Program-made: the position numbers and the translations under genes
NCBI GenBank assembly: GCA_031285625.1
Contig: JAITVV010000075.1
Coordinates: forward strand, 1-54,565
Reading direction: 5' to 3'
Origin: Prevotella sp.
Lineage (GTDB): Bacteria; Bacteroidota; Bacteroidia; Bacteroidales; Dysgonomonadaceae
Length of the DNA: 54,565 nt
Part shown: piece after piece, positions 27,924 through 54,565 of the stretch
How positions within the stretch are numbered: position 1 is the stretch's first letter
How the letters are laid out: every line of letters starts with the position of its first letter
The notes under the pieces: model-generated
The model's database searches: none
What the model saw: only the letters and a program-made list of their open reading frames with translations
Told to the model about the DNA's origin: nothing

Positions 27924-28642
27924 ATGGCTTCGATATGGAATCCGTGGCACGGCTGTCACAAAATAAGTGAGGGATGCCGATATTGTTATATGTATCGGGG
28001 CGATGCAAGGCGAGGTGTAGATAGTTCTATTGTAACCCAAACAAAAAACTTTGATATCCCGATAAGAAAAAAAAGAGCGGTGAATATAAAATTCCGTCAG
28101 GAACAGATGTATATACTTGTTTTACTTCCGATTTCTTCAATAAAGATGCTGACCAATGGCGTCCCGAAGCATGGAATATGATAAGAGAAAGAAGTGACTT
28201 GAATTTTCTGATGATAACAAAAAGGATAGATCGTTTTGAAATAGGTTTACCTTCCGATTGGAGAGAAGGGTATGATAATGTTACAATTTGCTGCACTGTT
28301 GAAAATCAGGACCGTGCAGATTACAGATTACCAATCTATAAAGAGGCTCCGATAAAGCACAAAATAATAATATGCGAACCATTATTAGAAAGGATAGACC
28401 TGAAACCTCATATTGGCAAGTGGGTAGAACATGTGACGGTGGGTGGAGAATCAGGGACAAATGTCCGTATATGCAATTATGACTGGATAAAAGAAATCCA
28501 TCAGCTTTGTATGGAAAATAATATCTCTTTCTGGTTTAAACAAACAGGAGCGAGATTTGTCAAAGATGGCAGATTATACAATATCCCCAGAAGAATGCAA
28601 CATGCCCAAGCCAGAAAAGCGGGATTGAATTATAAGAAATAA
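27924..28642 (+). pseudogene. DUF5131 (phage Gp37/Gp68-like) gene split by a frameshift
   Basis: The 5' part (27924-28181) encodes WNPWHGCHKISEGCRYCYMYRGDARRG, with the C-x6-C-x2-C motif of this family. After RKK the frame is lost. Shifting by -1 in the run of eight A (28067-28074) continues without a stop as KSGEYKIPSGTDVYTCFTSD, then DQWRPEAWNMIRERSDLNFL, through the ORF at 28178-28642. The joined protein would be about 239 aa, near the family size. The tract contains A AAA AAA in the zero frame, so slippage is possible, but a lost A is simpler. Function of the family is unknown. Confidence 0.85.
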
Positions 28643-35849: not shown

Positions 35850-37574
35850 ATGAAAAAATATTGGCATATACTAAAAAGATACAAGATAAGCTTGCTTATA
35901 AGCCCTTTCCTTGTCCTTATCACTGTGTTGTGCGAAACAATACAGCCCTGGTTTATGGCAAAGATCGTTGATGATGGTGTAATGCATCAGGACTTATCCG
36001 TAATCACCGAAATTGGCGCCTATATGGTGGGGGTATCTATTCTGGGATTAATAATCAGTATTATTAATGTGTATGTATCTTCGCGAGCGGCAATCGGATT
36101 TGGGACTGATCTTAGAAGCACTTTGTTTGAGAAAATACAACAGTTGTCATTTACCGAGATTGATAAGTTTAATTCAGCTTCACTTATTACCAGATTAACA
36201 AATGATATTACACGTATGCAGCAGGTAATACTTATGGGTATGCGGTTGATGTTGCGGTCTCCATTGATGCTGGTAATGGCTGTCTTTTTTGTCATTAAGA
36301 TTAATACCGATCTCGCTCTGATTATGATTGGGGCCATACCAGTATTAGGTATCAGTGTTTTTCTCATTTTACGAAAAGGGTTTCCTCTCTTTATGAAAGT
36401 ACAACAAAAACTGGATCAGTTGAATGCTGTTGTAAGAGAAAATCTTATTAACATACGTGTCGTAAAATCTTTTGTAAGGGAAGATTTTGAAACAAAGAAG
36501 TTTGAAAAGAGTAGTGAAGAATTACGGGATATGGTTATTAATGCATCCAATGTGGTAGTTTCTATATTCCCGGTTATGCAGCTCATTATGAATGTTTCGG
36601 TTATCGTCATTCTTTGGGTAGGTGGAGGAAAAGTAATGACAGGCGAGTTAAAGGTAGGTGAACTTATCTCTTTTGTCAATTACCTGATGCAAATACTCAT
36701 GGCGCTGATGTTGTTGTCAATGGTTATTATGAATGTGGCCAGAGCTTCAGCTTCATCAGAACGCATCCTGGAAGTCTTGAATACAGAACCGTCCTTAGAG
36801 AATACAACCGAAGGTATCGCTAACACGCATAAAATAAACAAAGGTGAAGTCATTTTCCGCAAAGTTTTCTTCCGCTATAGTGGCGGCGAAAATGATGTGC
36901 TGAAAGACATTAACTTTCATATACATCAGGGTGAGACAATAGCAGTAGTAGGTGCTACAGGCGCAGCAAAAACATCTATGCTTCAGTTGATACCCCGTCT
37001 TTATGATACTACAGCGGGTGAAGTTCTTATTGATGGTGTAAATGTAAAGGATTATAATCTGGATGAACTTCATGCCGAAATAAGAATGGTTTTGCAAAAG
37101 AACGAATTATTTACAGGTACAATTATTGAAAATCTGCGGTGGGGTAAGCCGGACGCTACCATCGAGGAAGTTGAGGAAGCTACAAAGGCTGCACAGGCCC
37201 ATGATTTCATTATGTCATTTACGGATGGATATAATACACTCCGTCTTCAAGAACTATGACCCTGTCTGCCGATTGCATAGTATTGATACGCTGGGTAATA
37301 ATAAAGACCGTAGTATCATGTAAAAGCTGACTCAGATTGTGCCGAATCTTTTGCTCCGTATCCGAATCTACCGCACTGGTACTGTCGTCAAGAATTAATA
37401 TTTTAGGCTTGCGTAGTAATGCCCGTGCAATACAGATACGTTGTTTTTGTCCCCCGGAAACATTGATGCCCCCGCGACCCAGCAGAGATCGATGCAATTG
37501 GAAAACCGGATGAACTGATAGAAAAGTCGAAAGTTTATCAGGAAATTTATAACTCACAGCAAATAGCTTTTTAA
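35850..37574 (+). pseudogene. ABC exporter half-transporter, ATPase domain broken by an internal inversion
   Basis: The ATG at 35850 (MKKYWHILKRYKISLLISPF) opens a type IV ABC exporter with six membrane helices, then an ATPase domain with Walker A GATGAAKTS and Q-loop MVLQKNELFTGT. The frame runs into a TGA at 37257-37259 soon after FTDGYNT, giving 469 aa without signature, Walker B or H-loop. Those parts (VSGGQKQR, ILILDDSTSAVD, TQRINTMQSADRV) lie reversed in 37239-37485. Turning that segment round gives an unbroken 574-aa protein ending VYQEIYNSQQIAF at the TAA 37572-37574. The Asp in place of the catalytic Glu after Walker B marks it as the degenerate subunit of a TM287/288-like pair. Confidence 0.92.
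37239..37485 (-). other. 247-bp inverted segment inside the ABC transporter gene
   Basis: Reverse-complemented, this segment encodes 82 codons from LLGRGGINVSGGQKQR to ADRVIVLEDG plus one base, exactly filling the gap between GYNT and EIDAIGKPDEL on the plus strand. The junctions share only the dinucleotide CT/AG (37239-37240 and 37484-37485); no longer inverted repeats are visible. It may be a recombination scar, a switch, or an assembly error. Confidence 0.9.
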
Positions 37575-37577
37575 GAT

Positions 37578-39350
37578 ATGGCACACGGAGATCAATATAA
37601 ACATAGCGGAAAAGCGGTGGAAGGCAAAAAAACCTTCATGAGACTGATGTCATATCTATCGAAAGATAAAAAACTATTATTGATCATTGGTTTTCTCATT
37701 ATTATCAGTATTGTGGCCAACTTACTGGGCTCATATATGATACGTCCGATCATCAATGATTATATTATACCCGGTAACTTCAACGGACTTGTAAATATTC
37801 TGCTTGTTTTGGCCGGTATATATCTGATAGGGGTAGCCGCTGTATATATTCAATACAGGCTGCTGAATAAAATCGGGCAACGCGCTGTAACCCGTATGCG
37901 TACTGATCTGTTCCGGAAGATGGAAAAACTCCCTATCAAATATTTTGACACGCATCAGCATGGAGACCTGATGAGCCGTTATACAAATGATATAGATCAG
38001 GTAAGTAACACCCTTACAGACAGCCTATCTGATATGTTGTCAAGTGCGCTTATGCTGATAGGTATTTTCGTTCTTATGATATATATAAGTCCTATACTTA
38101 CGTTGGTGACGCTTATTACCATACCTCTTATGTTCCTTAGTGCAAAGACAATTGTAAAACGAAGCAAGAAATACTTCAAAGAGCAACAGAATACACTGGG
38201 AGAAACAAACGGATATATTGAAGAAATGATCAGCGGGCAAAAGGTTATCAAAGTATTCGGTCATGAAAAGAAAGTCGAATCAGACTTTGATATACTAAAT
38301 CAGAGCCTGAAAGATAAATCCGAGAAAGCACAGTTCTATTCGGGTATGATGATGCCTGTCATGCAAAATCTGAATACACTGAATTATGTCATTATTACTA
38401 TTGTAGGAGGTCTATTAGCTATTTTCCGTGGATTTGATGTTGGGGGATTGGCAGCCTTTCTTCAATATTCACAACAATTCGGACGACCAATCAACGAACT
38501 GGCCAGTCTCTATAATAGTATCCAGGCAGCTATAGCAGGTGCGGAACGTATTTTCCAAGTTATTGACGAAGCTCCGGAACAGGAAGATGGACCAGAGGCT
38601 ATAGCCGTAAAAGATGTGAAAGGCGATCTGGAAATGAAAGATGTTTATTTCGGATATAAACCCGAGAAACTTATTCTTAAAGGGGTTTCGCTACATGCGA
38701 CACCTGGTACTAAGATTGCACTGGTAGGAGAAACAGGTGCCGGAAAAACGACAATACTAAACATGCTTCCGCGTTTTTTTGATATCAAATCGGGTGAAAT
38801 AAACATAGATGGAGTATCTATACAAAATATAAAACGTGATAACCTGCGACAATCAATGGCTATCGTATTACAAGATACTCATCTGTTTACCGGAACCGTA
38901 TGTGAAAATATCCGATTCGGAAGACTTGATGCTACTGACGAAGAGGTAATAGAAGCTGCTAAACTAACCGCTGCGCATTCCTTCATAAAACGTCTGCCAA
39001 AAGGATATCATACTCAACTGGAGAATGACGGGGCAAATCTCAGCCAGGGACAACGCCAATTATTAAACATAGCCCGGGCGGCAGTAGCCGATCCTTCTAT
39101 TTTGCTTTTGGATGAAGCTACCAGCAATATCGATACCCGTAGTGAGCTATTGATTCAAAGAGGGTTGGATAAGTTGATGGAAGGACGTACAAGCCTTATT
39201 ATAGCACACAGGTTATCTACTGTTCGTAATGCTGATAGGATTCTGGTACTCGACCATGGCCAGATTATAGAACAAGGCACTCACAAAGAACTTCTTGCCC
39301 TCAAAGGAAAATACTATTCGTTATACGAAGAGCAATTTGAGGAGTTTTAA
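37578..39350 (+). CDS. ABC exporter half-transporter, catalytic subunit
   Basis: This 590-aa protein has six membrane helices (about 35-325) and an intact ATPase domain: Walker A GETGAGKTT, Q-loop IVLQDTHLFTGT, signature LSQGQRQ, Walker B ILLLDEATSNID with catalytic Glu, and the H-loop IAHRLSTV. It starts 3 bp after the stop of the preceding ABC gene. The two would form a heterodimer exporting drugs, lipids or peptides; the substrate is unknown. With the partner disrupted, the pump should be inactive unless this subunit pairs with itself. Confidence 0.92.
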   Translation: MAHGDQYKHSGKAVEGKKTFMRLMSYLSKDKKLLLIIGFLIIISIVANLLGSYMIRPIINDYIIPGNFNGLVNILLVLAGIYLIGVAAVYIQYRLLNKIGQRAVTRMRTDLFRKMEKLPIKYFDTHQHGDLMSRYTNDIDQVSNTLTDSLSDMLSSALMLIGIFVLMIYISPILTLVTLITIPLMFLSAKTIVKRSKKYFKEQQNTLGETNGYIEEMISGQKVIKVFGHEKKVESDFDILNQSLKDKSEKAQFYSGMMMPVMQNLNTLNYVIITIVGGLLAIFRGFDVGGLAAFLQYSQQFGRPINELASLYNSIQAAIAGAERIFQVIDEAPEQEDGPEAIAVKDVKGDLEMKDVYFGYKPEKLILKGVSLHATPGTKIALVGETGAGKTTILNMLPRFFDIKSGEINIDGVSIQNIKRDNLRQSMAIVLQDTHLFTGTVCENIRFGRLDATDEEVIEAAKLTAAHSFIKRLPKGYHTQLENDGANLSQGQRQLLNIARAAVADPSILLLDEATSNIDTRSELLIQRGLDKLMEGRTSLIIAHRLSTVRNADRILVLDHGQIIEQGTHKELLALKGKYYSLYEEQFEEF

Positions 39351-44883: not shown

Positions 44884-44958
44884 CGGGATGTAGCGCAGTC
44901 CGGTTAGCGCACCTGCTTTGGGAGCAGGGGGTCCCAGGTTCGAATCCTGGTATCCCGA
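44884..44958 (+). tRNA. tRNA-Pro (anticodon TGG)
   Basis: The cloverleaf is complete: acceptor stem CGGGATG with TATCCCG (one G.T), D arm GCGC...GCGC, anticodon stem CCTGC/GCAGG with loop TTTGGGA (anticodon TGG), T arm CCAGG-TTCGAAT-CCTGG, discriminator A. CCA is not encoded. A hairpin terminator follows. The accessory block begins at its 3' side, which suggests its 3' end served as an integration site. Confidence 0.96.
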
Positions 44959-44966
44959 CGATTGAA

Positions 44967-45000
44967 AAAGAGACACTTACAGAGATGTAAGTGTCTCTTT
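44967..45000 (+). terminator. Terminator after tRNA-Pro
   Basis: A perfect 14-bp stem pairs 44967-44980 with 44987-45000 around AGAGAT and is followed by ATTTTT. Confidence 0.85.
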
Positions 45001-45012
45001 ATTTTTATGGGC

Positions 45013-45029
45013 GTGACGAATCCGTGACG
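45013..45029 (+). repeat. Paired GTGACG direct repeats, 11 bp apart
   Basis: GTGACG occurs at 45013-45018 and 45024-45029, one helical turn apart, 55 bp after the tRNA-Pro gene. Short direct repeats in this position resemble integrase arm-type sites at an attachment junction. The role is inferred. Confidence 0.4.
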
Positions 45030-45120
45030 TTTCAGAATGTTAAATAATACAAACACCCTACAATCTACACCTCTATTTTACCTAATTTTCAGCTTTAGAT
45101 TTAATTGATTTTGGTTGAAT

Positions 45121-46098
45121 ATGACAGCAGAAGAAAAGGCTTATTTACTAAAATGGAATATCGAGATTGAGAATGCTCCATTTGAAGATGCTCATTTTAT
45201 TGAAATAATGAAGAAATATAAGGGCTTAAAAGATGATGATATAGATATTCTATTTCGATACGGATATAATATTATTTCGGGAGTGTTTAAAAATTGTATT
45301 TCCTTGTCAAAGGATGGTATTTACCATAAATGCAAAGAGTATTATAGCTTGTTGAGATATTTAGACGAAAATCCCAAGACAAATATTAAATTCACCCCTT
45401 TCAATTCCAGCCGAGAAGAAAAGCTATTTCCATATAATACTATGATTAACGAAACTTTATACGATGGGATAAAGTTAATATTGGAAAATGAGATAATCCG
45501 ATTTTTTATGATTGGATTTAGTGAGAGTTACGTTAAAAAATTGTATTCCAAAGAAAAATACTCTTCAATCCCAGATATTCAGTACTTAAAAGAGAAATAT
45601 CCAAAGCAAGATGATTTTGTTATAAAATTTAGAGAAGACATAGAATATTTGTCTTCCGATTTAGAATTTGTTAAGTCCATGCTCCAAGTCTTAGAGTTGG
45701 ATATTGACGATTTAGAAAGAGAACCAAAAATGTCTAATAGATTTGCAGACACATATAATGTGATATATACTTTGATTGACCCACAAAAAGCATCAAGAAT
45801 TTGTCATTTACAGATTCAAGAAATTGCATTATTCTTGATGATAGATGAATTTCTTAGTTCCGATGTTCAATCCATACAAGAAATAACATTACAAGATTGG
45901 CAATGTAAAGTTATTTTTGAAGTGTTGTCTTTTTTCAAATTGTATAGCTTTTCCAAGAATAATATTGCTAAATCTGTGAGAAGACGATTCAACCATTTCA
46001 AAGAACTTAAAAATATGGAAAAAGAACAAGCTATTATTGAGGAAAAGATCATTACAGTTGATAGCTATATAATTAAGAAAAGATTTTCAAAAAAATGA
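45121..46098 (+). CDS. Uncharacterized protein of the mobile element, 325 aa
   Basis: The ATG at 45121 (MTAEEKAYLLKWN) is preferred to the TTG at 45115. The protein is almost wholly alpha-helical, rich in Lys, Glu and Ile, with no signal or membrane segment. The C-terminal part (SFSKNNIAKSVRRRFNHFKELKNMEKEQAIIEEKIITVD) looks like a coiled coil. I do not recognise a family. It occupies the place next to the tRNA where an integrase would be expected, but shows no Tyr- or Ser-recombinase motif. Confidence 0.65.
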   Translation: MTAEEKAYLLKWNIEIENAPFEDAHFIEIMKKYKGLKDDDIDILFRYGYNIISGVFKNCISLSKDGIYHKCKEYYSLLRYLDENPKTNIKFTPFNSSREEKLFPYNTMINETLYDGIKLILENEIIRFFMIGFSESYVKKLYSKEKYSSIPDIQYLKEKYPKQDDFVIKFREDIEYLSSDLEFVKSMLQVLELDIDDLEREPKMSNRFADTYNVIYTLIDPQKASRICHLQIQEIALFLMIDEFLSSDVQSIQEITLQDWQCKVIFEVLSFFKLYSFSKNNIAKSVRRRFNHFKELKNMEKEQAIIEEKIITVDSYIIKKRFSKK

Positions 46099-46205
46099 AT
46101 TGAAACTTTGTACATAAATTTATATTAAAAAGGTTTCATTATCACCGTGTATTTTTACTTGCATCTGGTTGTATGTTTGCGAAAAGAATTCAAAAATATG
46201 CAATT

Positions 46206-46547
46206 ATGAATACAAGATTTGAAGAATTAAGAAACAAGCCTTTAGCTTTGCTTACAGTTGAAGAATTCCTTGAATTACAACAAGGACAGAAACAGGAATC
46301 TCCCCGACAAACCTATATATCGGATATTATAGGAATTGAAGAAGCCGTTATTCTTACAGGCTATAAAAAATCTACCCTATATAGGAAAACATCAACCAAT
46401 GCTATTCCTTTTCATAAGCGAAGCAACAAAGTTGTATTTAAACGTTCCGAACTTGAAGCATGGATGCTTGAGAATCGACAAGAAACAATTGACGAAAGGG
46501 TGAAAAGATTAGACCAACAATTCTTATCCAAAAAACAAAAAGCATAG
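46206..46547 (+). CDS. Helix-turn-helix protein, excisionase-like
   Basis: From the ATG at 46206 (MNTRFEELRNKPLALLTVEEFLELQ) this is a 113-aa protein. The middle holds a MerR/excisionase-type winged helix: YISDIIGIEEAVILTGYKKSTLYRKTSTNAIPFHKRSNKVVFKRSELEAWM. Such genes precede the primase-helicase in Bacteroidota mobilizable elements and bind the element's DNA. A hairpin terminator overlaps the stop codon. Confidence 0.82.
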   Translation: MNTRFEELRNKPLALLTVEEFLELQQGQKQESPRQTYISDIIGIEEAVILTGYKKSTLYRKTSTNAIPFHKRSNKVVFKRSELEAWMLENRQETIDERVKRLDQQFLSKKQKA

Positions 46548-46568
46548 GGTTAGCCGACCTTATGCTTT
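46539..46568 (+). terminator. Terminator overlapping the excisionase-like gene stop
   Basis: An 11-bp stem pairs 46539-46549 (AAAGCATAGGG) with 46558-46568 (CCTTATGCTTT), with one G.T pair and loop TTAGCCGA. The T tail is weak. Confidence 0.6.
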
Positions 46569-46640
46569 AATTAATTACTCATTGTTTAATAATTATTTTC
46601 GCTTTTTTCAGAGAAAGCGAAGATACAAAATAATCTGTAT

Positions 46641-47858
46641 ATGATTGAGAATCCATATATAAGAGTTGCCACATCTTACTTAAAAAAAGTAGAAAAACCT
46701 CTGATGTCAAAAGATACAGTAGAGATTCTTATTCCATGGAATAAGGATACTATTATATCAGACCACGGCAAAGACTATTTATCTAAAATACCCTGTTTTG
46801 ATGGGTTTTGCTGTATTCCGTCACATATAAATTATCAACAACAAATAGGGACATTCTATAATCAGTATTATGAGCTTAAATATAAACCAAAAGCAGGCGA
46901 TTGTAGTCTGACATTAGAATTTATCAGACATATATTTCAGTCTCAATACGAAATAGGCTTAGATTATTTAAAAATACTATATGAGCATCCGCATCAGATA
47001 TTGCCTATTTTGTGTTTAGTCAGTTCAGAGAGAGGTACAGGAAAAACAACATTTTTAAATTTCTTGAAAATGATTTTCGATAAAAATATGACGCTCAATA
47101 CAAATGATGATTTCCGTTCGCAATTCAATTCTGATTGGGCAAACAAGTTAATTATTGCAATTGATGAAGTCTTATTGGATAAACGGGAGGATTCAGAACG
47201 AATCAAAAACTTGTCAACTGCCCGACAATTTAAAGCAGAAGCCAAAGGAAAAGACCGCCAAGAAATTGAGTTTTTCGGAAAGTTTATATTGTGTTCCAAT
47301 AATGAGACCAGTTTCATTTATCTTGATAAAGAAGAAATTCGATATTGGGTAATACAAGTGCCACCTTTTTGTGAGTCACTTAAAAATAAATTAGATACTC
47401 TGATGGATATTCTTAAATCTGAAATACCTATGTTCCTGTATTTTTTGATAAATAGAGAATACTCAACACAAAAACAGTCAAGAATGTGGTTCACGCCTAA
47501 GCAAATAGAAACAAAGGCTTTATTTCGCCTTAAACAATCAAATACAAGTTTTGTGGAACGGGAAATTGCCGATATCCTATTTTATATTTTGGAACGAAGA
47601 GAATTGGATAAAGTACAATTTCAGATACAGGATATAGTTATATCAATGGAAAATCGGAGAGTCAGAAAAAGTATATCATATTCAGACATTCAATCTGTCG
47701 TCAAAACAAATTGGGGGCTAATCTCGAAAAATTCATCATACACAAAGTATATAATATGTTATGATGGAGAAATAATATCTTCGGTTCAGAAAGGGCGATT
47801 CTATACAATAACTAAACTCTTTCTTATTGAAAATTTTGTTGACTTGTTGAACTTATAG
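46641..47858 (+). CDS. DUF5906/VapE-like primase-helicase ATPase
   Basis: This 405-aa protein carries a superfamily 3-type ATPase core: Walker A SSERGTGKTTFLNFLKMIF (about 131-149), Walker B LIIAIDEVLLD, and a sensor-like FILCSNNETSFIYLDKEEIRYWVIQVP. This is typical of replication helicases of P4-like phages and Bacteroidota mobilizable elements. No separate primase domain is present. Clustered repeats just downstream may be its origin. Confidence 0.8.
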   Translation: MIENPYIRVATSYLKKVEKPLMSKDTVEILIPWNKDTIISDHGKDYLSKIPCFDGFCCIPSHINYQQQIGTFYNQYYELKYKPKAGDCSLTLEFIRHIFQSQYEIGLDYLKILYEHPHQILPILCLVSSERGTGKTTFLNFLKMIFDKNMTLNTNDDFRSQFNSDWANKLIIAIDEVLLDKREDSERIKNLSTARQFKAEAKGKDRQEIEFFGKFILCSNNETSFIYLDKEEIRYWVIQVPPFCESLKNKLDTLMDILKSEIPMFLYFLINREYSTQKQSRMWFTPKQIETKALFRLKQSNTSFVEREIADILFYILERRELDKVQFQIQDIVISMENRRVRKSISYSDIQSVVKTNWGLISKNSSYTKYIICYDGEIISSVQKGRFYTITKLFLIENFVDLLNL

Positions 47859-47887
47859 TTTATTGAATTGATATACAGCAGTATAAT

Positions 47888-48004
47888 GGTCAACAAAAAG
47901 TCGACATCTCTTCAACAGAAGTAACAATTATCCATTGTTGACATTAATGTTGACTGTAAATCATTGAATATCAATCCCTGTCAACAAATCAACAGATTCA
48001 ACAA
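47888..48004. repeat. Cluster of eight TCAACA/TGTTGA iteron-like repeats, candidate origin
   Basis: Copies related to GTCAACA lie at 47889, 47900 (GTCGACA) and 47911, exactly 11 bp apart. Inverted copies (TGTTGAC) lie at 47936 and 47948. Direct copies follow at 47980, 47988 and 47997. The helical spacing and location right after the helicase gene fit a replication origin or Rep-binding array. This has not been matched to a known origin. Confidence 0.55.
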
Positions 48005-48232
48005 TAAATTTATCCGTTAGCAGAAGAGAAGACAGTTTTATCACCTTTTTTCTTTTGTTTCTCTCTCATATATTTTGTAGAGTTGATTAGCAAGAGGGGA
48101 ACGTCACAAAGTAACATTCCGAAGACTAAGCATAGCTTAATCAGTTAATTACAATATAACATAAAACCCGATAAAGTAACATTTAAAACAAAAGGGAAGA
48201 AAAATGACTGTTTCACAGAAGATTATAAAATT
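48005..48232. other. Gene-free stretch before the mobilization genes, possible oriT
   Basis: No ORF is seen. A small imperfect hairpin GACTAAGC-ATA-GCTTAATC (48124-48131 with 48135-48142) lies about 90 bp before the first mobilization gene, where an origin of transfer would be expected. The nick site cannot be recognised. Confidence 0.35.
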
Positions 48233-48700
48233 ATGGAACATAAAATAATACGAATCTCGCCTACATTACATGCAGAATTTAAGAATCTCGTAAAAAAGCA
48301 CTCTGACTTAAACCTATCACTTGCAACAGAGATATTGATAAAAGATGCACTTAAACGAGGTGAAATAAAAGAATCGAATCAGACAGCATATAAGGCAATA
48401 AAAGAATTAGACCAGACTTTTCGTAAATGGATGCGACAACAAGAGAAAACTCATTTGAGTAAAATATCAGAAGAATTACTTGCTTTAGCCCATGAGTTGC
48501 GAGATACTACAACTAAACAGGATTTGAAGCTACAAAGTGAGAAAATAGCTAATGCTTTTGAAAAATCCTATGAGTATATATCAAAAATTATAATTGAAGA
48601 CTATTCAAAGACAAAATCAGAACTAATAGAATTAAAGTCTGCGATTGACGAGTTATCCAAAATTATAGATAAAAAGCTGACAAAGAAATTACTTAGCTGA
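48233..48700 (+). CDS. BfmA/BtgA-type mobilization accessory protein
   Basis: This 155-aa protein has an N-terminal ribbon-helix-helix-like part (KIIRISPTLHAEFKNLVKKHSDLNLSLATEILIKDALKRG) and a long helical C-terminus. BfmA/BtgA proteins of Bacteroides elements bind oriT DNA and load the relaxase. Its TGA overlaps the relaxase ATG by one base, so the two are coupled. Confidence 0.8.
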   Translation: MEHKIIRISPTLHAEFKNLVKKHSDLNLSLATEILIKDALKRGEIKESNQTAYKAIKELDQTFRKWMRQQEKTHLSKISEELLALAHELRDTTTKQDLKLQSEKIANAFEKSYEYISKIIIEDYSKTKSELIELKSAIDELSKIIDKKLTKKLLS

Positions 48701-49455
48701 TGTATACTAAAATCATAAATCCTAAAGTTCATGGGAAATCAGCTTATAATAATACTGGCTCATGTGTTGCTTTGGTTAATTATCTGAATAAAGAGAATAA
48801 AGCATTACAACTTATTGATAATGAATTATTCTTCGACCAATATCGGAATAATGCAACATCAAATGAAGTACTGCAAACCATAGACAACAGTCATAAAGGA
48901 TTAAGAAAAGACACCCTAAAATTTCATAGCCTTGTTATTGCTCCAACGGCTCAAGAGCTATATCATATCAGACAAAGTACGGAGTATATGAAAGATTATA
49001 CACGGGCTGTTATGGAACAATATGCACAAAGTTTCAATTTGCCGAATGGAAAACGATTATCAAGTGATGATTTAGTTTGGTTTGCTAAGTTAGAGTATAT
49101 GAGAAATGGCGAACTATCCGCTAATAGTATGCATATTCATATTATCGTTTCAGCACGGGATAAAAGCCAAAGTATTACCCTCAATCCTAATATCAATAAC
49201 CGAAATCGCTTTAATCGAGTACAGTTCTATTTGAAAAGTGAGAAAATATTTGATAATATGTTCGGATTCAAGCGGAAAGAATCTCTGTTGTACAATCATC
49301 AAGTAAAAAGATATGGTTCTCTCTCGGAAAGATTATCTTTATATAAAGATAACCAAAAGTCAAAAGAAGCTATTCATAACTTAGTAGGTATATTTGAAAA
49401 TCTTGATTATGGAAATGAACAGGATAATACGAGAAAGAGGAGGAGAACAAGATAG
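48700..49455 (+). CDS. DUF5712-type relaxase (mobilization protein)
   Basis: This 251-aa protein shows GSCVALVNYLNKEN near the N-terminus, then FHSLVIAPTAQEL, a candidate catalytic Tyr region (YMKDYTRAVMEQYAQ), and MHIHIIVSARD with an HxH metal site (about 146-156). FNRVQFYLKSEKIFDNMFG follows. It would nick oriT during conjugal mobilization by a helper. The Arg-rich end TRKRRRTR is short of a C-terminal domain, as in other small Bacteroidota relaxases. Confidence 0.8.
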   Translation: MYTKIINPKVHGKSAYNNTGSCVALVNYLNKENKALQLIDNELFFDQYRNNATSNEVLQTIDNSHKGLRKDTLKFHSLVIAPTAQELYHIRQSTEYMKDYTRAVMEQYAQSFNLPNGKRLSSDDLVWFAKLEYMRNGELSANSMHIHIIVSARDKSQSITLNPNINNRNRFNRVQFYLKSEKIFDNMFGFKRKESLLYNHQVKRYGSLSERLSLYKDNQKSKEAIHNLVGIFENLDYGNEQDNTRKRRRTR

Positions 49456-49499
49456 CTTAAAAGATAAATCATTCTTTATTTACACTTTAAAAATGTAAA

Positions 49500-49581
49500 T
49501 GGATTACAAATATTAGACATGAAATAGTGTAATTTCGATTTTTATCTTTAAATTTACAATTGGATTACAAATATTAGACAT
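49500..49581 (+). repeat. 21-bp perfect direct repeat upstream of the AAA ATPase gene
   Basis: The same 21 bases, beginning TGGATTACAAATATTAGA, stand at 49500-49520 and 49561-49581, starting 61 bp apart. The second copy ends 3 bp before the ATPase ATG. They may be operator sites, a duplicated promoter segment, or the scar of cassette insertion. Confidence 0.75.
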
Positions 49582-49584
49582 AAA

Positions 49585-50823
49585 ATGATTATCAACTTTA
49601 GTGTACAGAATTTTGGTTCAATTAAAGATAAACAGACTTTATCTTTTGAGGCTGACAGGTCAGAGCATTTAGAGGATTATTATATAATTCCGATTAATGG
49701 CTTGAGATTATTGAAATTGGGATTAATATATGGAGCTAATGCTTCGGGGAAAACTACAATATTGAAAGCTCTCGACTTTTTGAGTAATATCGTGCTAAAC
49801 CCTAAAGAGAAGAAAACTGATATTTTTGACTTTAATCCATTCTTATTTGATTCTGAAACGCCTAAGCAAAACACGATTTTATCTATTGAGTTCATACAGA
49901 ATTCAGTACGATATTATTATGAGATTGAGTTGAATAAAAAAGCTATTGTAAATGAGACACTTGATTTCTATAATTCACATAAAGCCAATGTTTTTAAAAG
50001 AACAACCAATTTAGAAACTCAATTTTCTGAAATAGCCTTTGGTAGCAAGATTAAAACAGATAAGGTTTTTGAGAAAACTTTAGAATCAAATACTTTATGG
50101 AATAATACTGTATTAGGAGGATTCCTTAAAACCAATATTGAGTTGAAAGAGTTAAAGGATGCAACGGATTGGTTCGCTAATCATTTAAACTCATTAATCC
50201 ATCCTAAAACACAGCTGGATACATTTGTTATAACTCAACTCAATAACTCGACTATTAAAAAAGATGATGTTATTCAAATCTTGCAAAAAGCGGATTTAAA
50301 CATATCCGATATACATATAAAAGAGGGTAATAAAAGGATTCTACTTGATTCTATGAAATCATTTCAAACTTATAACTTAGAGTTTGAGCATACATTAAAT
50401 AATGAAAAATATAATTTGCCTTTTGAATTTGAATCACAGGGAACTCAACGATATTATGGGTTTGCGGGGATATTGAGTCAAGCAATTAGAGAATCTTTTG
50501 TTTTTCTCATAGATGAACTTGAATCTTCTTTACATCCCGATTTATTTACTCATTTTCTATTATCATTCTTGGTAAATTCAAAAAACTCCCAAATTATTGC
50601 GACGACACATAATCGGGAAATATTGAATAATAAAGATATCTTCCGAAATGATGCTGTTTGGATTACTGATAAATCCGAAAATTGCGCTACTGAACTTTAT
50701 TCTCTATCTGACTTTGATACTTCGGTAATCAGAGATACTAGTAATATTTACAATGCGTACAAGATAGGTAAACTTGGCGGTATTCCTAATTTGGGAGACT
50801 ATTATATTGATATTGAAGAATGA
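49585..50823 (+). CDS. AAA family ATPase, RloA/AbiLi-like
   Basis: This 412-aa SMC/OLD-type ATPase has N-terminal MIINFSVQNFGSIKDKQTLSFEA, Walker A YGANASGKTTILKAL (49-63), a divergent middle, the signature-like FESQGTQRYYGFAGIL, Walker B FVFLIDELESSLHPDLF (about 304-320), and a switch His in IIATTHNREIL. With an adjacent RloB gene it matches the two-gene AbiL/RloAB anti-phage arrangement. The ATPase probably senses infection and controls the partner. It overlaps rloB by 4 bp. Confidence 0.85.
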   Translation: MIINFSVQNFGSIKDKQTLSFEADRSEHLEDYYIIPINGLRLLKLGLIYGANASGKTTILKALDFLSNIVLNPKEKKTDIFDFNPFLFDSETPKQNTILSIEFIQNSVRYYYEIELNKKAIVNETLDFYNSHKANVFKRTTNLETQFSEIAFGSKIKTDKVFEKTLESNTLWNNTVLGGFLKTNIELKELKDATDWFANHLNSLIHPKTQLDTFVITQLNNSTIKKDDVIQILQKADLNISDIHIKEGNKRILLDSMKSFQTYNLEFEHTLNNEKYNLPFEFESQGTQRYYGFAGILSQAIRESFVFLIDELESSLHPDLFTHFLLSFLVNSKNSQIIATTHNREILNNKDIFRNDAVWITDKSENCATELYSLSDFDTSVIRDTSNIYNAYKIGKLGGIPNLGDYYIDIEE

Positions 50824-51467
50824 GACAGAATAGAAGAATCCCCATACAAGTAAAACCTAAATACGCAGTTGTTGTAGACGGTGAGACAGAATTTTGGTAT
50901 ATACAAATGCTGAAACGGAACGAAAGGCTTATCAGTGTTGATTTAAAACCCGAAATTCCTCAAAGAAAAAAAATATCAGAGCAATATTCAAAAGTCGTTG
51001 ACCTATCAAAAGACTATGATAAAGTCTATTGGATTATTGATTTTGATGTTATTAATAAAGAAACCCGTGAGGCAAAGAGAGGAACAAAAACCGCATTACA
51101 AGAGCTAAAAGAGTACTGGGATAATATTGAGAAAAACCATAAAAATATTGTTGTTGTCATTGTAAATAATCCTTGTTTTGAATATTGGTTATTATTACAT
51201 TTTGAAGCAACATCTAAGTTTTATAACTCTCATGATGAATTAATTAAACAATTAAAGAAACATCTTTCGGATTATGAGAAGTCGCAAACTTATTATACAA
51301 AACAAAATAGAGATATTTATTTGCGTCTTACCTCAAAATTAGCTGATGCAATTTCTAATGCAAAAAGATTAACCGAATTCGATTTTGAGAATCCCAGTCG
51401 AGGTTTAAGCCAAATGCACTTGCTTTTTGAAGATATAGGAATAAGTCCAACAAAAGACGGAAAATAA
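50820..51467 (+). CDS. RloB-like protein (AbiLii-like effector candidate)
   Basis: This 215-aa protein starts with a TOPRIM-like pattern: YAVVVDGETEFWYIQMLKR (Glu after the first strand), later VYWIIDFDVINKE (DxD) and NPCFEYWLLLHFE. C-terminal SRGLSQMHLLFEDI completes the RloB family pattern. RloB proteins are thought to be nucleases controlled by the paired ATPase, as in other ATPase-TOPRIM defence pairs. It overlaps the ATPase gene (ATGA) and touches the phosphatase gene. Confidence 0.82.
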   Translation: MRQNRRIPIQVKPKYAVVVDGETEFWYIQMLKRNERLISVDLKPEIPQRKKISEQYSKVVDLSKDYDKVYWIIDFDVINKETREAKRGTKTALQELKEYWDNIEKNHKNIVVVIVNNPCFEYWLLLHFEATSKFYNSHDELIKQLKKHLSDYEKSQTYYTKQNRDIYLRLTSKLADAISNAKRLTEFDFENPSRGLSQMHLLFEDIGISPTKDGK

Positions 51468-53062: not shown

Positions 53063-53283
53063 AAGCTGTTTATTTTGTAGTTAATACTTACTGATTGTTT
53101 ATTCACTATTTCACAATAGCTATTCACTTAACCACAAAAAGAAGACTCTAAGTTTGCAGAAGCAAGATAAGAGATCGGAAATTTATCTTAAAAATGCCAA
53201 GCGAGGCGAATAAATACCTCTGTATCTTATCACAATAGAATATCGGTCTTATTACCTTTGTCGTATAAAGGGAAAGACAGATA
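53063..53283. other. Intergenic stretch containing the IS110 left end
   Basis: No gene is seen. The left boundary of the IS110 element probably lies here; GACTCTAA at 53144-53151 is complementary to TTAGAGTC (53400-53407) in the candidate bridge RNA, which hints at an end near 53.14 kb. Confidence 0.4.
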
Positions 53284-53401
53284 GGTGGAGAGAGGAAACC
53301 TGTAAGAAGCAAGCACTTGAGGCTACCCCACGTAACGGCCTCTCTCCACCAAGCTGCAAAACTCCGATAGAATATTAAGGCCGCGAGCCTATTTAGAGTT
53401 T
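53284..53401 (+). ncRNA. Candidate IS110 bridge RNA
   Basis: Two stem-loop domains lie in the non-coding left end just before the transposase. The first has a perfect 12-bp stem (GGTGGAGAGAGG 53284-53295 with CCTCTCTCCACC 53339-53350) enclosing 43 nt. The second pairs AAACTC (53359-53364) with GAGTTT (53396-53401) and has an inner AGGC/GCCT stem, leaving asymmetric loops. IS110-family elements are known to carry such a guide RNA here. The exact ends and guides are not proven. Confidence 0.6.
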
Positions 53402-53449
53402 AGAGTCAAAAACAGCGTTTATCCGTCTTAAAACAAACACAACAAAGTT

Positions 53450-54526
53450 ATGAAAAAGTTATTCATTGGCATCGATTTTTCAAAGGAGAAGCTCGATGTG
53501 ACGATTATCCTTGCATGCGGAATGAAGGAGATTGGTTCCAGGGAATATGGAAGTTTTCCTAATGACACCAAAGGCTATCGCAAGCTCATGGGGTGGGTTA
53601 AGACCAACGCATGGGATACAAACCCTGAAGAATGGCTGTTCTGCGGAGAAGACACCGGTTCATGCAGTATCGGCCTAAGCAAATGGCTTTATGGCAGAGG
53701 CTGCGACACCTGGATTGAGAACGCCTATGCCATTAAACACAGTAGTGGAATCCAACGTGTCAAGAACGACAAGGCAGACTCAGCTGCTATTGCTGAATAT
53801 GCCTGGCGGTATCAGGACAAGGCTATAACCTTTGAACCATTAAGCGATTCCTTGTTTCAACTACGAGAGGTTTTCCTGTATCGTCATAAACTGGTTCAGC
53901 AGAGAGTAGCCATGGAGGTACGAAAGATGGACAAATCCAACACCGGAAAGTGCAAAGCCCTATCGTTTATAAATCGTAAGAGCAAGCATCTTATCACAGA
54001 GATAAACAAATCCATCAAGGAATGTGACAAGATGATTGATGCGATAATAGATGCAGACGAAGAACTAAAGGAGAATTATGCCATTATAACCTCAATCAAA
54101 GGCGTAGCACGGCAGAATGCAACTTGTATGATAATATACACCAATAACTTTAAGAAATTTAACGGTAATCCTCGAAAAATTGCCTGTTATTATGGTGTCG
54201 CTCCCTTTGGTAAACAATCCGGTACAAGCATTAACACACCGGCTCGTACAAGCCACTTTGCAAACAAACTTATCAAGTCTTTATTGGGGCAGGCTGCCCA
54301 TATCGCAAAGATATTTAATCCTGAAATTAAGGAATACTATCAACGGCTGATAAGTAAGGGAAAGAAACCGCAAGTAGCTCTAAACAATGTCAAGAATAAG
54401 CTAATCCGAATAATTGTGGCTCTGGTTAGGAAAAAAGTACCGTATGATCCATACACGTACAAGTTTTATGCATCCCGCATACAAGAGAGGACAACTGAGA
54501 ATAATAAACAGTTAATTTATTGTTAA
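53450..54526 (+). CDS. IS110 family transposase (DEDD recombinase)
   Basis: This 358-aa protein has an N-terminal RuvC-like domain with Asp9 (FIGIDFSKEKLDV), Glu67 (FCGEDTG) and an acidic pair in VKNDKADSAAIAEYAW (Asp107, Asp110). The C-terminal Transposase_20 domain has ITSIKGVARQNATCMI, then RKIACYYGVAPFGKQSGTSI with the conserved Ser. IS110 enzymes act with a bridge RNA that pairs with donor and target DNA. The ORF is intact and preceded by the candidate RNA. Confidence 0.93.
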   Translation: MKKLFIGIDFSKEKLDVTIILACGMKEIGSREYGSFPNDTKGYRKLMGWVKTNAWDTNPEEWLFCGEDTGSCSIGLSKWLYGRGCDTWIENAYAIKHSSGIQRVKNDKADSAAIAEYAWRYQDKAITFEPLSDSLFQLREVFLYRHKLVQQRVAMEVRKMDKSNTGKCKALSFINRKSKHLITEINKSIKECDKMIDAIIDADEELKENYAIITSIKGVARQNATCMIIYTNNFKKFNGNPRKIACYYGVAPFGKQSGTSINTPARTSHFANKLIKSLLGQAAHIAKIFNPEIKEYYQRLISKGKKPQVALNNVKNKLIRIIVALVRKKVPYDPYTYKFYASRIQERTTENNKQLIYC

Positions 54527-54565
54527 ATCAAATAAAACATTAGGATATTAGCATAGAATACGTGG

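What the first reader, a model, noticed from the sequence alone, without database searches (positions are those of the whole stretch)
37239..37485. 247-bp inversion disables one half of a heterodimeric ABC exporter, and re-inversion restores it exactly
The plus strand loses the ATPase frame after FTDGYNT, while the missing signature and Walker B block lies on the minus strand. Reversing 37239-37485 gives one 574-aa frame, with 82 codons plus one base fitting both junctions, and a TAA 3 bp before the partner gene. The junctions share only CT/AG. A clean, frame-exact inversion could be a reversible on/off switch, a one-time mutation, or an assembly error. The 2-bp overlap would suit a serine-recombinase-like crossover, but no recombinase is nearby.
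Basis: partly seen in the sequence, partly recalled or inferred. Interest (0 to 1): 0.8.

Follow-up and report, generated by a model that had tools for sequence, protein, structure and literature searches.

The report
Small inversion breaking an ABC exporter
In this one Dysgonomonas-like genome a 247-base piece of an ABC-exporter gene is turned round and the gene is broken; nothing found points to a reversible switch, so it is most likely a recent, ordinary one-off mutation, or else an artefact of the DNA library.

Summary
Window 37239-37485 is inverted relative to the relatives examined: of 84 distinct loci, 82 are collinear, none is inverted and two end at a contig end. The block carries the ABC signature, Walker B and H-loop of the first subunit of a TM287/TM288-like heterodimeric exporter. 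The inversion is balanced to the base.

A switch is not supported. The junctions share 2 bp, about what chance gives, without inverted repeats above background. "Frame-exact" is trivial: any balanced inversion is undone by flipping it back.

The pieces show no decay, so the inversion is younger than about 0.01 neutral substitutions per site, or never existed in cells. The assembly looks like a de Bruijn graph with k near 119, so a repeat-driven assembler error is unlikely; chimeric template or a minority strain cannot be excluded. A codon-usage scan of 52.5% of the assembly found no second case.

Its inferred core is also CT, but its inferred donor site does not resemble either breakpoint.

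Verdict: a recent loss-of-function micro-inversion, or a library artefact. Raw reads would decide.

The parts
35850..37238 (+). Uninverted first part of the degenerate-site subunit: transmembrane domain and Walker A half of the ATPase (463 aa). In the present orientation the frame adds 6 residues and stops at 37257-37259.
   Evidence: Pfam ABC_membrane and ABC_tran positions 1-96/137; all 463 residues align to each of 18 full-length relatives and 398 to L008; nearest PDB chain 3qf4_A
37239..37485 (-). Inverted 247-bp block coding on minus for residues 464-545: ABC signature, Walker B with Asp in place of the catalytic Glu, D-loop, H-loop with Gln
   Evidence: adjacent and on the opposite strand in 24 relatives' genomes; on the gene's strand in 98 of 100 loci; motif names recalled
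37239..37240 (.). Left breakpoint; the 2 bp shared between the junctions
37484..37485 (.). Right breakpoint; the matching 2 bp
37488..37574 (+). Uninverted tail of the same subunit (residues 547-574) and its stop, 3 bp before the partner gene
   Evidence: 100% identical over 28 aa to L003; 0 private changes at 11 invariant sites; the gap to the next ATG is 3 bp in 11 of 19 relatives
37578..39350 (+). Intact partner subunit (590 aa) with canonical Walker B Glu; nearest solved relative TM288
53146..54565 (+). IS110-family element (left non-coding end plus DEDD transposase 53450-54526), the only recombinase found on this contig by the Pfam families searched; compared with the breakpoints and not linked to them

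Best explanation
A recent, one-off, balanced 247-bp micro-inversion inside the first gene of a two-gene TM287/TM288-type heterodimeric ABC exporter. It takes the signature motif, Walker B, D-loop and H-loop out of frame, so subunit A would end after 469 aa. Because the signature of A should complete the catalytic ATP site formed with the Walker motifs of subunit B (established ABC-dimer knowledge, recalled), the exporter should be dead even though B is intact. B may also be translated less, since its close upstream stop is gone. Shown: orientation, balance, lack of repeats, lack of decay, absence in the relatives examined. Inferred: that it existed in cells, that it arose by microhomology template switching or rejoining of breaks, and the loss of function.
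For: The three pieces match consecutive residues of intact relatives. The inversion is derived: 82 of 84 distinct loci collinear, 0 inverted, 2 cut by contig ends (the same test calls the window's own loci inverted), and 24 of 24 relatives' genomes that have both the main part and the adjacent block. Junction identity is 2 bp; register-fixed inverted-repeat scores are at background (fraction of random pairs as good 0.14-0.39) and free-register scores within 30 bp are below the random mean (0.87-0.97). No decay: private changes at sites invariant in 18 relatives are 2 of 210, 0 of 56 and 0 of 11; per-relative counts in the first piece are 0-11, and the relative-rate counts against L003 are balanced (14-24 against 18-27). 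It is isolated: no second case held up in 2,544,414 bases, with 69 of 80 simulated 247-bp inversions recovered. Eight pairs among 70 contig ends share exactly 119 bp and there are 0 ambiguous bases, so both junctions were probably carried by reads.
Against: No raw reads were seen, and absence of decay fits an artefact equally well. In Salmonella the experimentally confirmed spontaneous inversions had longer junction repeats (deduced cut-off 12 bp or more; PMC3411829, passages), so a 2-bp balanced inversion is not the usual spontaneous type. No Ku was found for end joining.
Confidence: 0.62

Rival explanations
1. Artefact: the inversion is absent from most cells and was made by a chimeric library or amplified template, a minority strain, or a post-assembly join, and entered the consensus.
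For: Seen in this genome only. All three pieces look fully constrained. MDA chimeras are mostly inverted sequences, over 70% of junctions primed at 2-21 complementary bases (PMC1855051, abstract).
Against: MDA chimeras of that kind are inversions with intervening deletions; here two junctions without loss are needed. k near 119 and 0 ambiguous bases speak against graph or gap-fill errors. No second such event held up in 52.5% of the assembly.
Confidence: 0.27
2. Reversible on/off switch by a site-specific recombinase acting on very short sites.
For: Clean balanced inversion inside a gene with 2 bp shared at the crossover; 5 resolvase-type matches and 30 integrase-type matches (26 over the cut-off, some of them parts of one gene) elsewhere in the genome.
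Against: No inverted repeats, whereas invertons are described as flanked by 10-40 nt repeats (PMC11892184, passages). No resolvase- or integrase-type match on this contig. No flipped relative in 82 informative loci.
Confidence: 0.07
3. One-time inversion catalysed by an IS110-family bridge-RNA recombinase using CT-core sites, possibly the element at 53146-54565.
For: IS110 element 16 kb away with three left flanks in the assembly, each joining it at CT. IS621 has a CT core, can be made to invert DNA, and genomic inversions between observed insertion sites were seen in rare cases (PMC11208160, passages). The shared bases here are CT/AG. One target half fits the left breakpoint at 5 of 8 positions (5% of CT sites do as well).
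Against: Inferred donor site (two variants, its right end is uncertain by a base) versus the breakpoints: 1-2 of 11 matches, reached by 80-96% of all CT sites in the window. The 5-of-8 fit is the best of ten half-site comparisons, the other nine being reached by 14-100% of CT sites.
Confidence: 0.04

Closest known systems
TM287/TM288 heterodimeric ABC exporter (PDB 3qf4)
   Same: Best solved match for both subunits by sequence; Asp at the Walker B position of A and a deviating signature LSQGQ in B (sequence read; a non-canonical Walker B Asp and a deviating signature at the degenerate site are described in PMC5216877, passages)
   Different: Subunit A is interrupted by the inversion; substrate unknown
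Intragenic invertons (Chanin et al. 2024; recalled, seen only as a citation in PMC11868660)
   Same: DNA inversion inside a coding sequence
   Different: No inverted repeats, no second orientation seen, no recombinase site
IS110/IS621 bridge-RNA recombination and Piv-type inversion
   Same: 2-bp CT core; an IS110-family element in the same window
   Different: Donor and target similarity at the breakpoints not above background overall
MDA chimeras (PMC1855051, abstract only)
   Same: Inverted local sequence with very short junction identity
   Different: Here two junctions and no loss of bases

Membership tests
Invertible switch (inverton) | Inverted repeats (10-40 nt) at both ends | tested here: not met
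   2-bp identity; similarity at background or below
Invertible switch (inverton) | Both orientations found within a strain or among relatives | tested here: not met
   Among relatives: 0 of 84 distinct loci inverted, 2 uninformative. Within the strain: not testable, no reads
Invertible switch (inverton) | Recombinase gene nearby | tested here: inconclusive
   No PF00239 or PF00589 match on the contig; an IS110-family DEDD enzyme 16 kb away
Heterodimeric ABC exporter (TM287/288 type) | Two adjacent half-transporters, each with membrane and ATPase domains | tested here: met
   A is split by the inversion
Heterodimeric ABC exporter (TM287/288 type) | One degenerate and one canonical ATP site | tested here: met
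   By sequence motifs only, read: Asp in the Walker B of A, Glu in B; VSGGQ in A, LSQGQ in B
IS110-mediated inversion | Breakpoints match donor and target guides | tested here: not met
   Inferred donor of the window element not matched; target halves not above background overall, best 5 of 8. The other five PF01548 matches not tested; guides not mapped
Repeat-driven assembler inversion | Inverted repeat at least as long as the assembly k-mer around the block | tested here: not met
   Eight pairs among 70 contig ends share 119 bp; the breakpoints share 2 bp

The most novel reading that the evidence does not exclude
A bridge-RNA-guided IS110-family recombinase (the window's own element or another one in the genome) inverted a host coding segment between two non-element CT-core sites: a natural footprint of programmable inversion in a host gene.
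Probability: 0.04. Interest if true: 0.75.

Novelty: new member of a known kind. Interest (0 to 1): 0.22.

Why it matters
Mostly as a caution. A clean, frame-restoring inversion is not evidence of a switch, because every balanced inversion restores the frame when flipped. If real, it is a very young loss-of-function event in a conserved exporter pair and shows that a balanced inversion with almost no homology occurred in a Bacteroidales genome. If an artefact, it is a kind of consensus error that breaks genes silently in draft genomes. The CT core coincidence with an IS110 element is worth a read-level check.

Tried and rejected
Serine-recombinase half-sites: register-fixed comparison of the two breakpoints over 12-40 positions gave 4/12 to 12/40 matches, reached by 14-39% of random pairs; free-register repeats within 30 bp scored below the random mean. 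The repeat search listed only short imperfect arms (the 25 longest of 34 inverted pairs shown), none of them in register with both breakpoints.

Paralogue-driven recombination: in the own genome the matches covering most of piece 1 are its own partner (31% identical) and others at 21-26%; short ATPase-domain matches reach 37%. The DNA of the locus occurs once. Homologous inversion or gene conversion is therefore unlikely.

Relaxed selection: no excess of private changes. A slip of mine read piece 3 in the wrong frame (11 of 11 false private changes, and false counts in its relative-rate row); one search corrected it to 0 of 11. The dN/dS attempt gave nothing usable because synonymous sites are saturated.

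Genome-wide scan: 28 raw candidates, the window locus among them. Stops and starts around 25 of the 28 were looked at; the other three (L139, L203:8145, L219) and four of the larger ones again, and the genes around L133. Apart from the window locus they read as gaps between one gene's stop and the next gene's start or as complete opposite-strand genes. This rests on stops, starts and gap lengths, not on homology; the Pfam check of some of them failed and was not repeated. The scan covered 52.5% of the assembly and is blind to inversions in non-coding DNA and weak for very short ones; recall on simulated inversions was 66, 69, 70 and 64 of 80 for 150, 247, 500 and 1000 bp.

Collections: the named-genome search kept the best 80 of 284 relatives and may leave out records of the window's own genome; viral contigs gave one 41% relative only. 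Paper searches for invertons, micro-inversions, MDA chimeras, bridge RNA, Piv and TM287/288 were seen as listings; no title listed concerns this locus, and the gene was not searched by name. Chanin et al. is not held.

Full report
What is there. The window is a whole contig of a 4.84-Mb, 96-contig draft genome whose nearest named relatives for this locus are Dysgonomonas (best 80 of 284 kept). A two-gene operon lies at 35850-39350. The second gene is intact (590 aa). The first is broken: its plus-strand frame is open to 37238, adds six residues and stops. The missing part of its ATPase domain is on the minus strand of 37239-37485 (Pfam ABC_tran profile positions 95-137), and its tail is again on plus, ending 3 bp before the second gene.

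Comparison with relatives. Searched as three separate pieces, the gene matches residues 1-463, 464-545 and 547-574 of intact 574-aa relatives. A blastn search of 101 genomes (own included) gave matches in 33 relatives; 24 of them, 16 of the same genus, have both the main part and the adjacent block, and in all 24 the block is on the strand opposite to the window's; the other nine have only short weak matches (counted from the table). Of 100 fetched loci, 98 have the block on the strand of the gene, none is inverted, and two end at a contig end. Sixteen of the 100 repeat another locus, so the distinct figure is 82 of 84, and the same test finds the window's own loci inverted. The inversion is therefore derived and so far private to this genome.

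Chance. Codon-usage decoding without any homology gave the strand switch at 37239 and 37473. With a larger training set it still called the locus, but put the right edge at 37586 with a modest score of 7.5. Together with 98.8% identity of the 82 minus-strand residues to the nearest relative, chance is excluded.

Junctions. The two breakpoints share 2 bp. For random breakpoints I expect at least 2 bp in about 17% of cases (own calculation, p = 0.26 per base). Similarity of the flanks in inverted register is at background, and in free register below it. The 'exact' restoration of the frame follows from the balance of the inversion and adds nothing for a switch.

Age. At sites invariant in 18 relatives the window has 2 of 210, 0 of 56 and 0 of 11 private changes. 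If both are blamed on loss of constraint, the upper 95% Poisson bound (6.3 changes over 277 codons times about 2.25 non-synonymous sites) is about 0.01 substitutions per site (own calculation). So the inversion is very young or never existed in cells.

Assembly. Among 70 contig ends at hand, eight pairs share exactly 119 bp and one pair (the IS110 right end) 115 bp, and there is no ambiguous base in 2,544,414 bases. I infer a de Bruijn assembly with k near 119, perhaps from a metagenome. Such an assembler needs k-mers across both junctions, and a wrong turn would need an inverted repeat of about that length, which is absent. What remains is chimeric template, a minority strain, or a true mutation. 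MDA chimeras are mostly inverted sequences with intervening deletions (PMC1855051, abstract), not balanced inversions. Against a natural origin, confirmed spontaneous inversions in Salmonella had longer junction repeats (PMC3411829, passages).

Is it one of many? A six-frame codon-usage model applied to 134 stretches (52.5% of the assembly) gave 28 raw candidates; none but the window locus held up on inspection of stops, starts and gap lengths, which is not a homology test. Recall on simulated 247-bp inversions was 69 of 80.

Enzymes. Five resolvase-type and 30 integrase-type matches (26 over the cut-off) lie elsewhere, and there is no Ku match. The window does hold an IS110-family DEDD transposase, one of six PF01548 matches in the genome, four over the cut-off. 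Its left end starts at CT at three flanks, and IS621 of this family has a CT core and can invert DNA (PMC11208160, passages). That matches the CT/AG shared here. But the inferred donor site of this element matches the breakpoints at only 1-2 of 11 positions, as 80-96% of CT sites do. Of ten half-site comparisons with known targets the best is 5 of 8 at the left breakpoint (5% of CT sites), the rest 14-100%. I keep this as the boldest reading, at 4%.

Function. Both subunits are nearest to TM287/TM288 among solved structures when the pieces are searched (the 82-residue block alone ranks ABCB-type proteins first). Subunit A has Asp where the catalytic Glu should be and VSGGQ as signature; B has Glu and LSQGQ (read). 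In TM287/288 the degenerate site is hydrolysis-incompetent and its signature deviates from LSGGQ (PMC5216877, passages). The inverted block thus carries the signature that should serve the one active site, and the exporter should be dead (inference). No close full-length paralogue exists to replace A.

Verdict. A recent one-off micro-inversion (0.62), an artefact (0.27), a switch (0.07), an IS110-mediated event (0.04). Raw reads decide.

Noticed in passing
27924-28642: A second broken gene: a frame with a weak match to radical SAM mobile pair protein A (TIGR04471, E 1.5e-5, 24.6 bits against a cut-off of 355, second fragment only) is split over two plus frames that overlap at 28055-28181, next to a run of eight A at 28067-28074; a real frameshift or a homopolymer error.
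   Followed up: partly
53146-54565: IS110-family element at the contig end; three different left flanks (C20, C49, C27) and two right flanks (C40, C6) in the assembly show a multi-copy element joined at CT on the left.
   Followed up: partly
44884-51467: A tRNA gene is followed by a helix-turn-helix gene, a VapE/DUF5906 gene, a DUF5712 gene (recalled as mobilisation-related) and an AAA_21 plus RloB pair: looks like an integrated mobilisable island with defence-type cargo.
   Followed up: no
L266 and L267 (C40 start, C6 end): The DNA just right of two IS110 copies is alike in pattern but diverged; resolvase-type genes lie on both contigs, about 0.6-2.2 kb from the copy on C6 and about 15 kb from that on C40 (flanks).
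   Followed up: no
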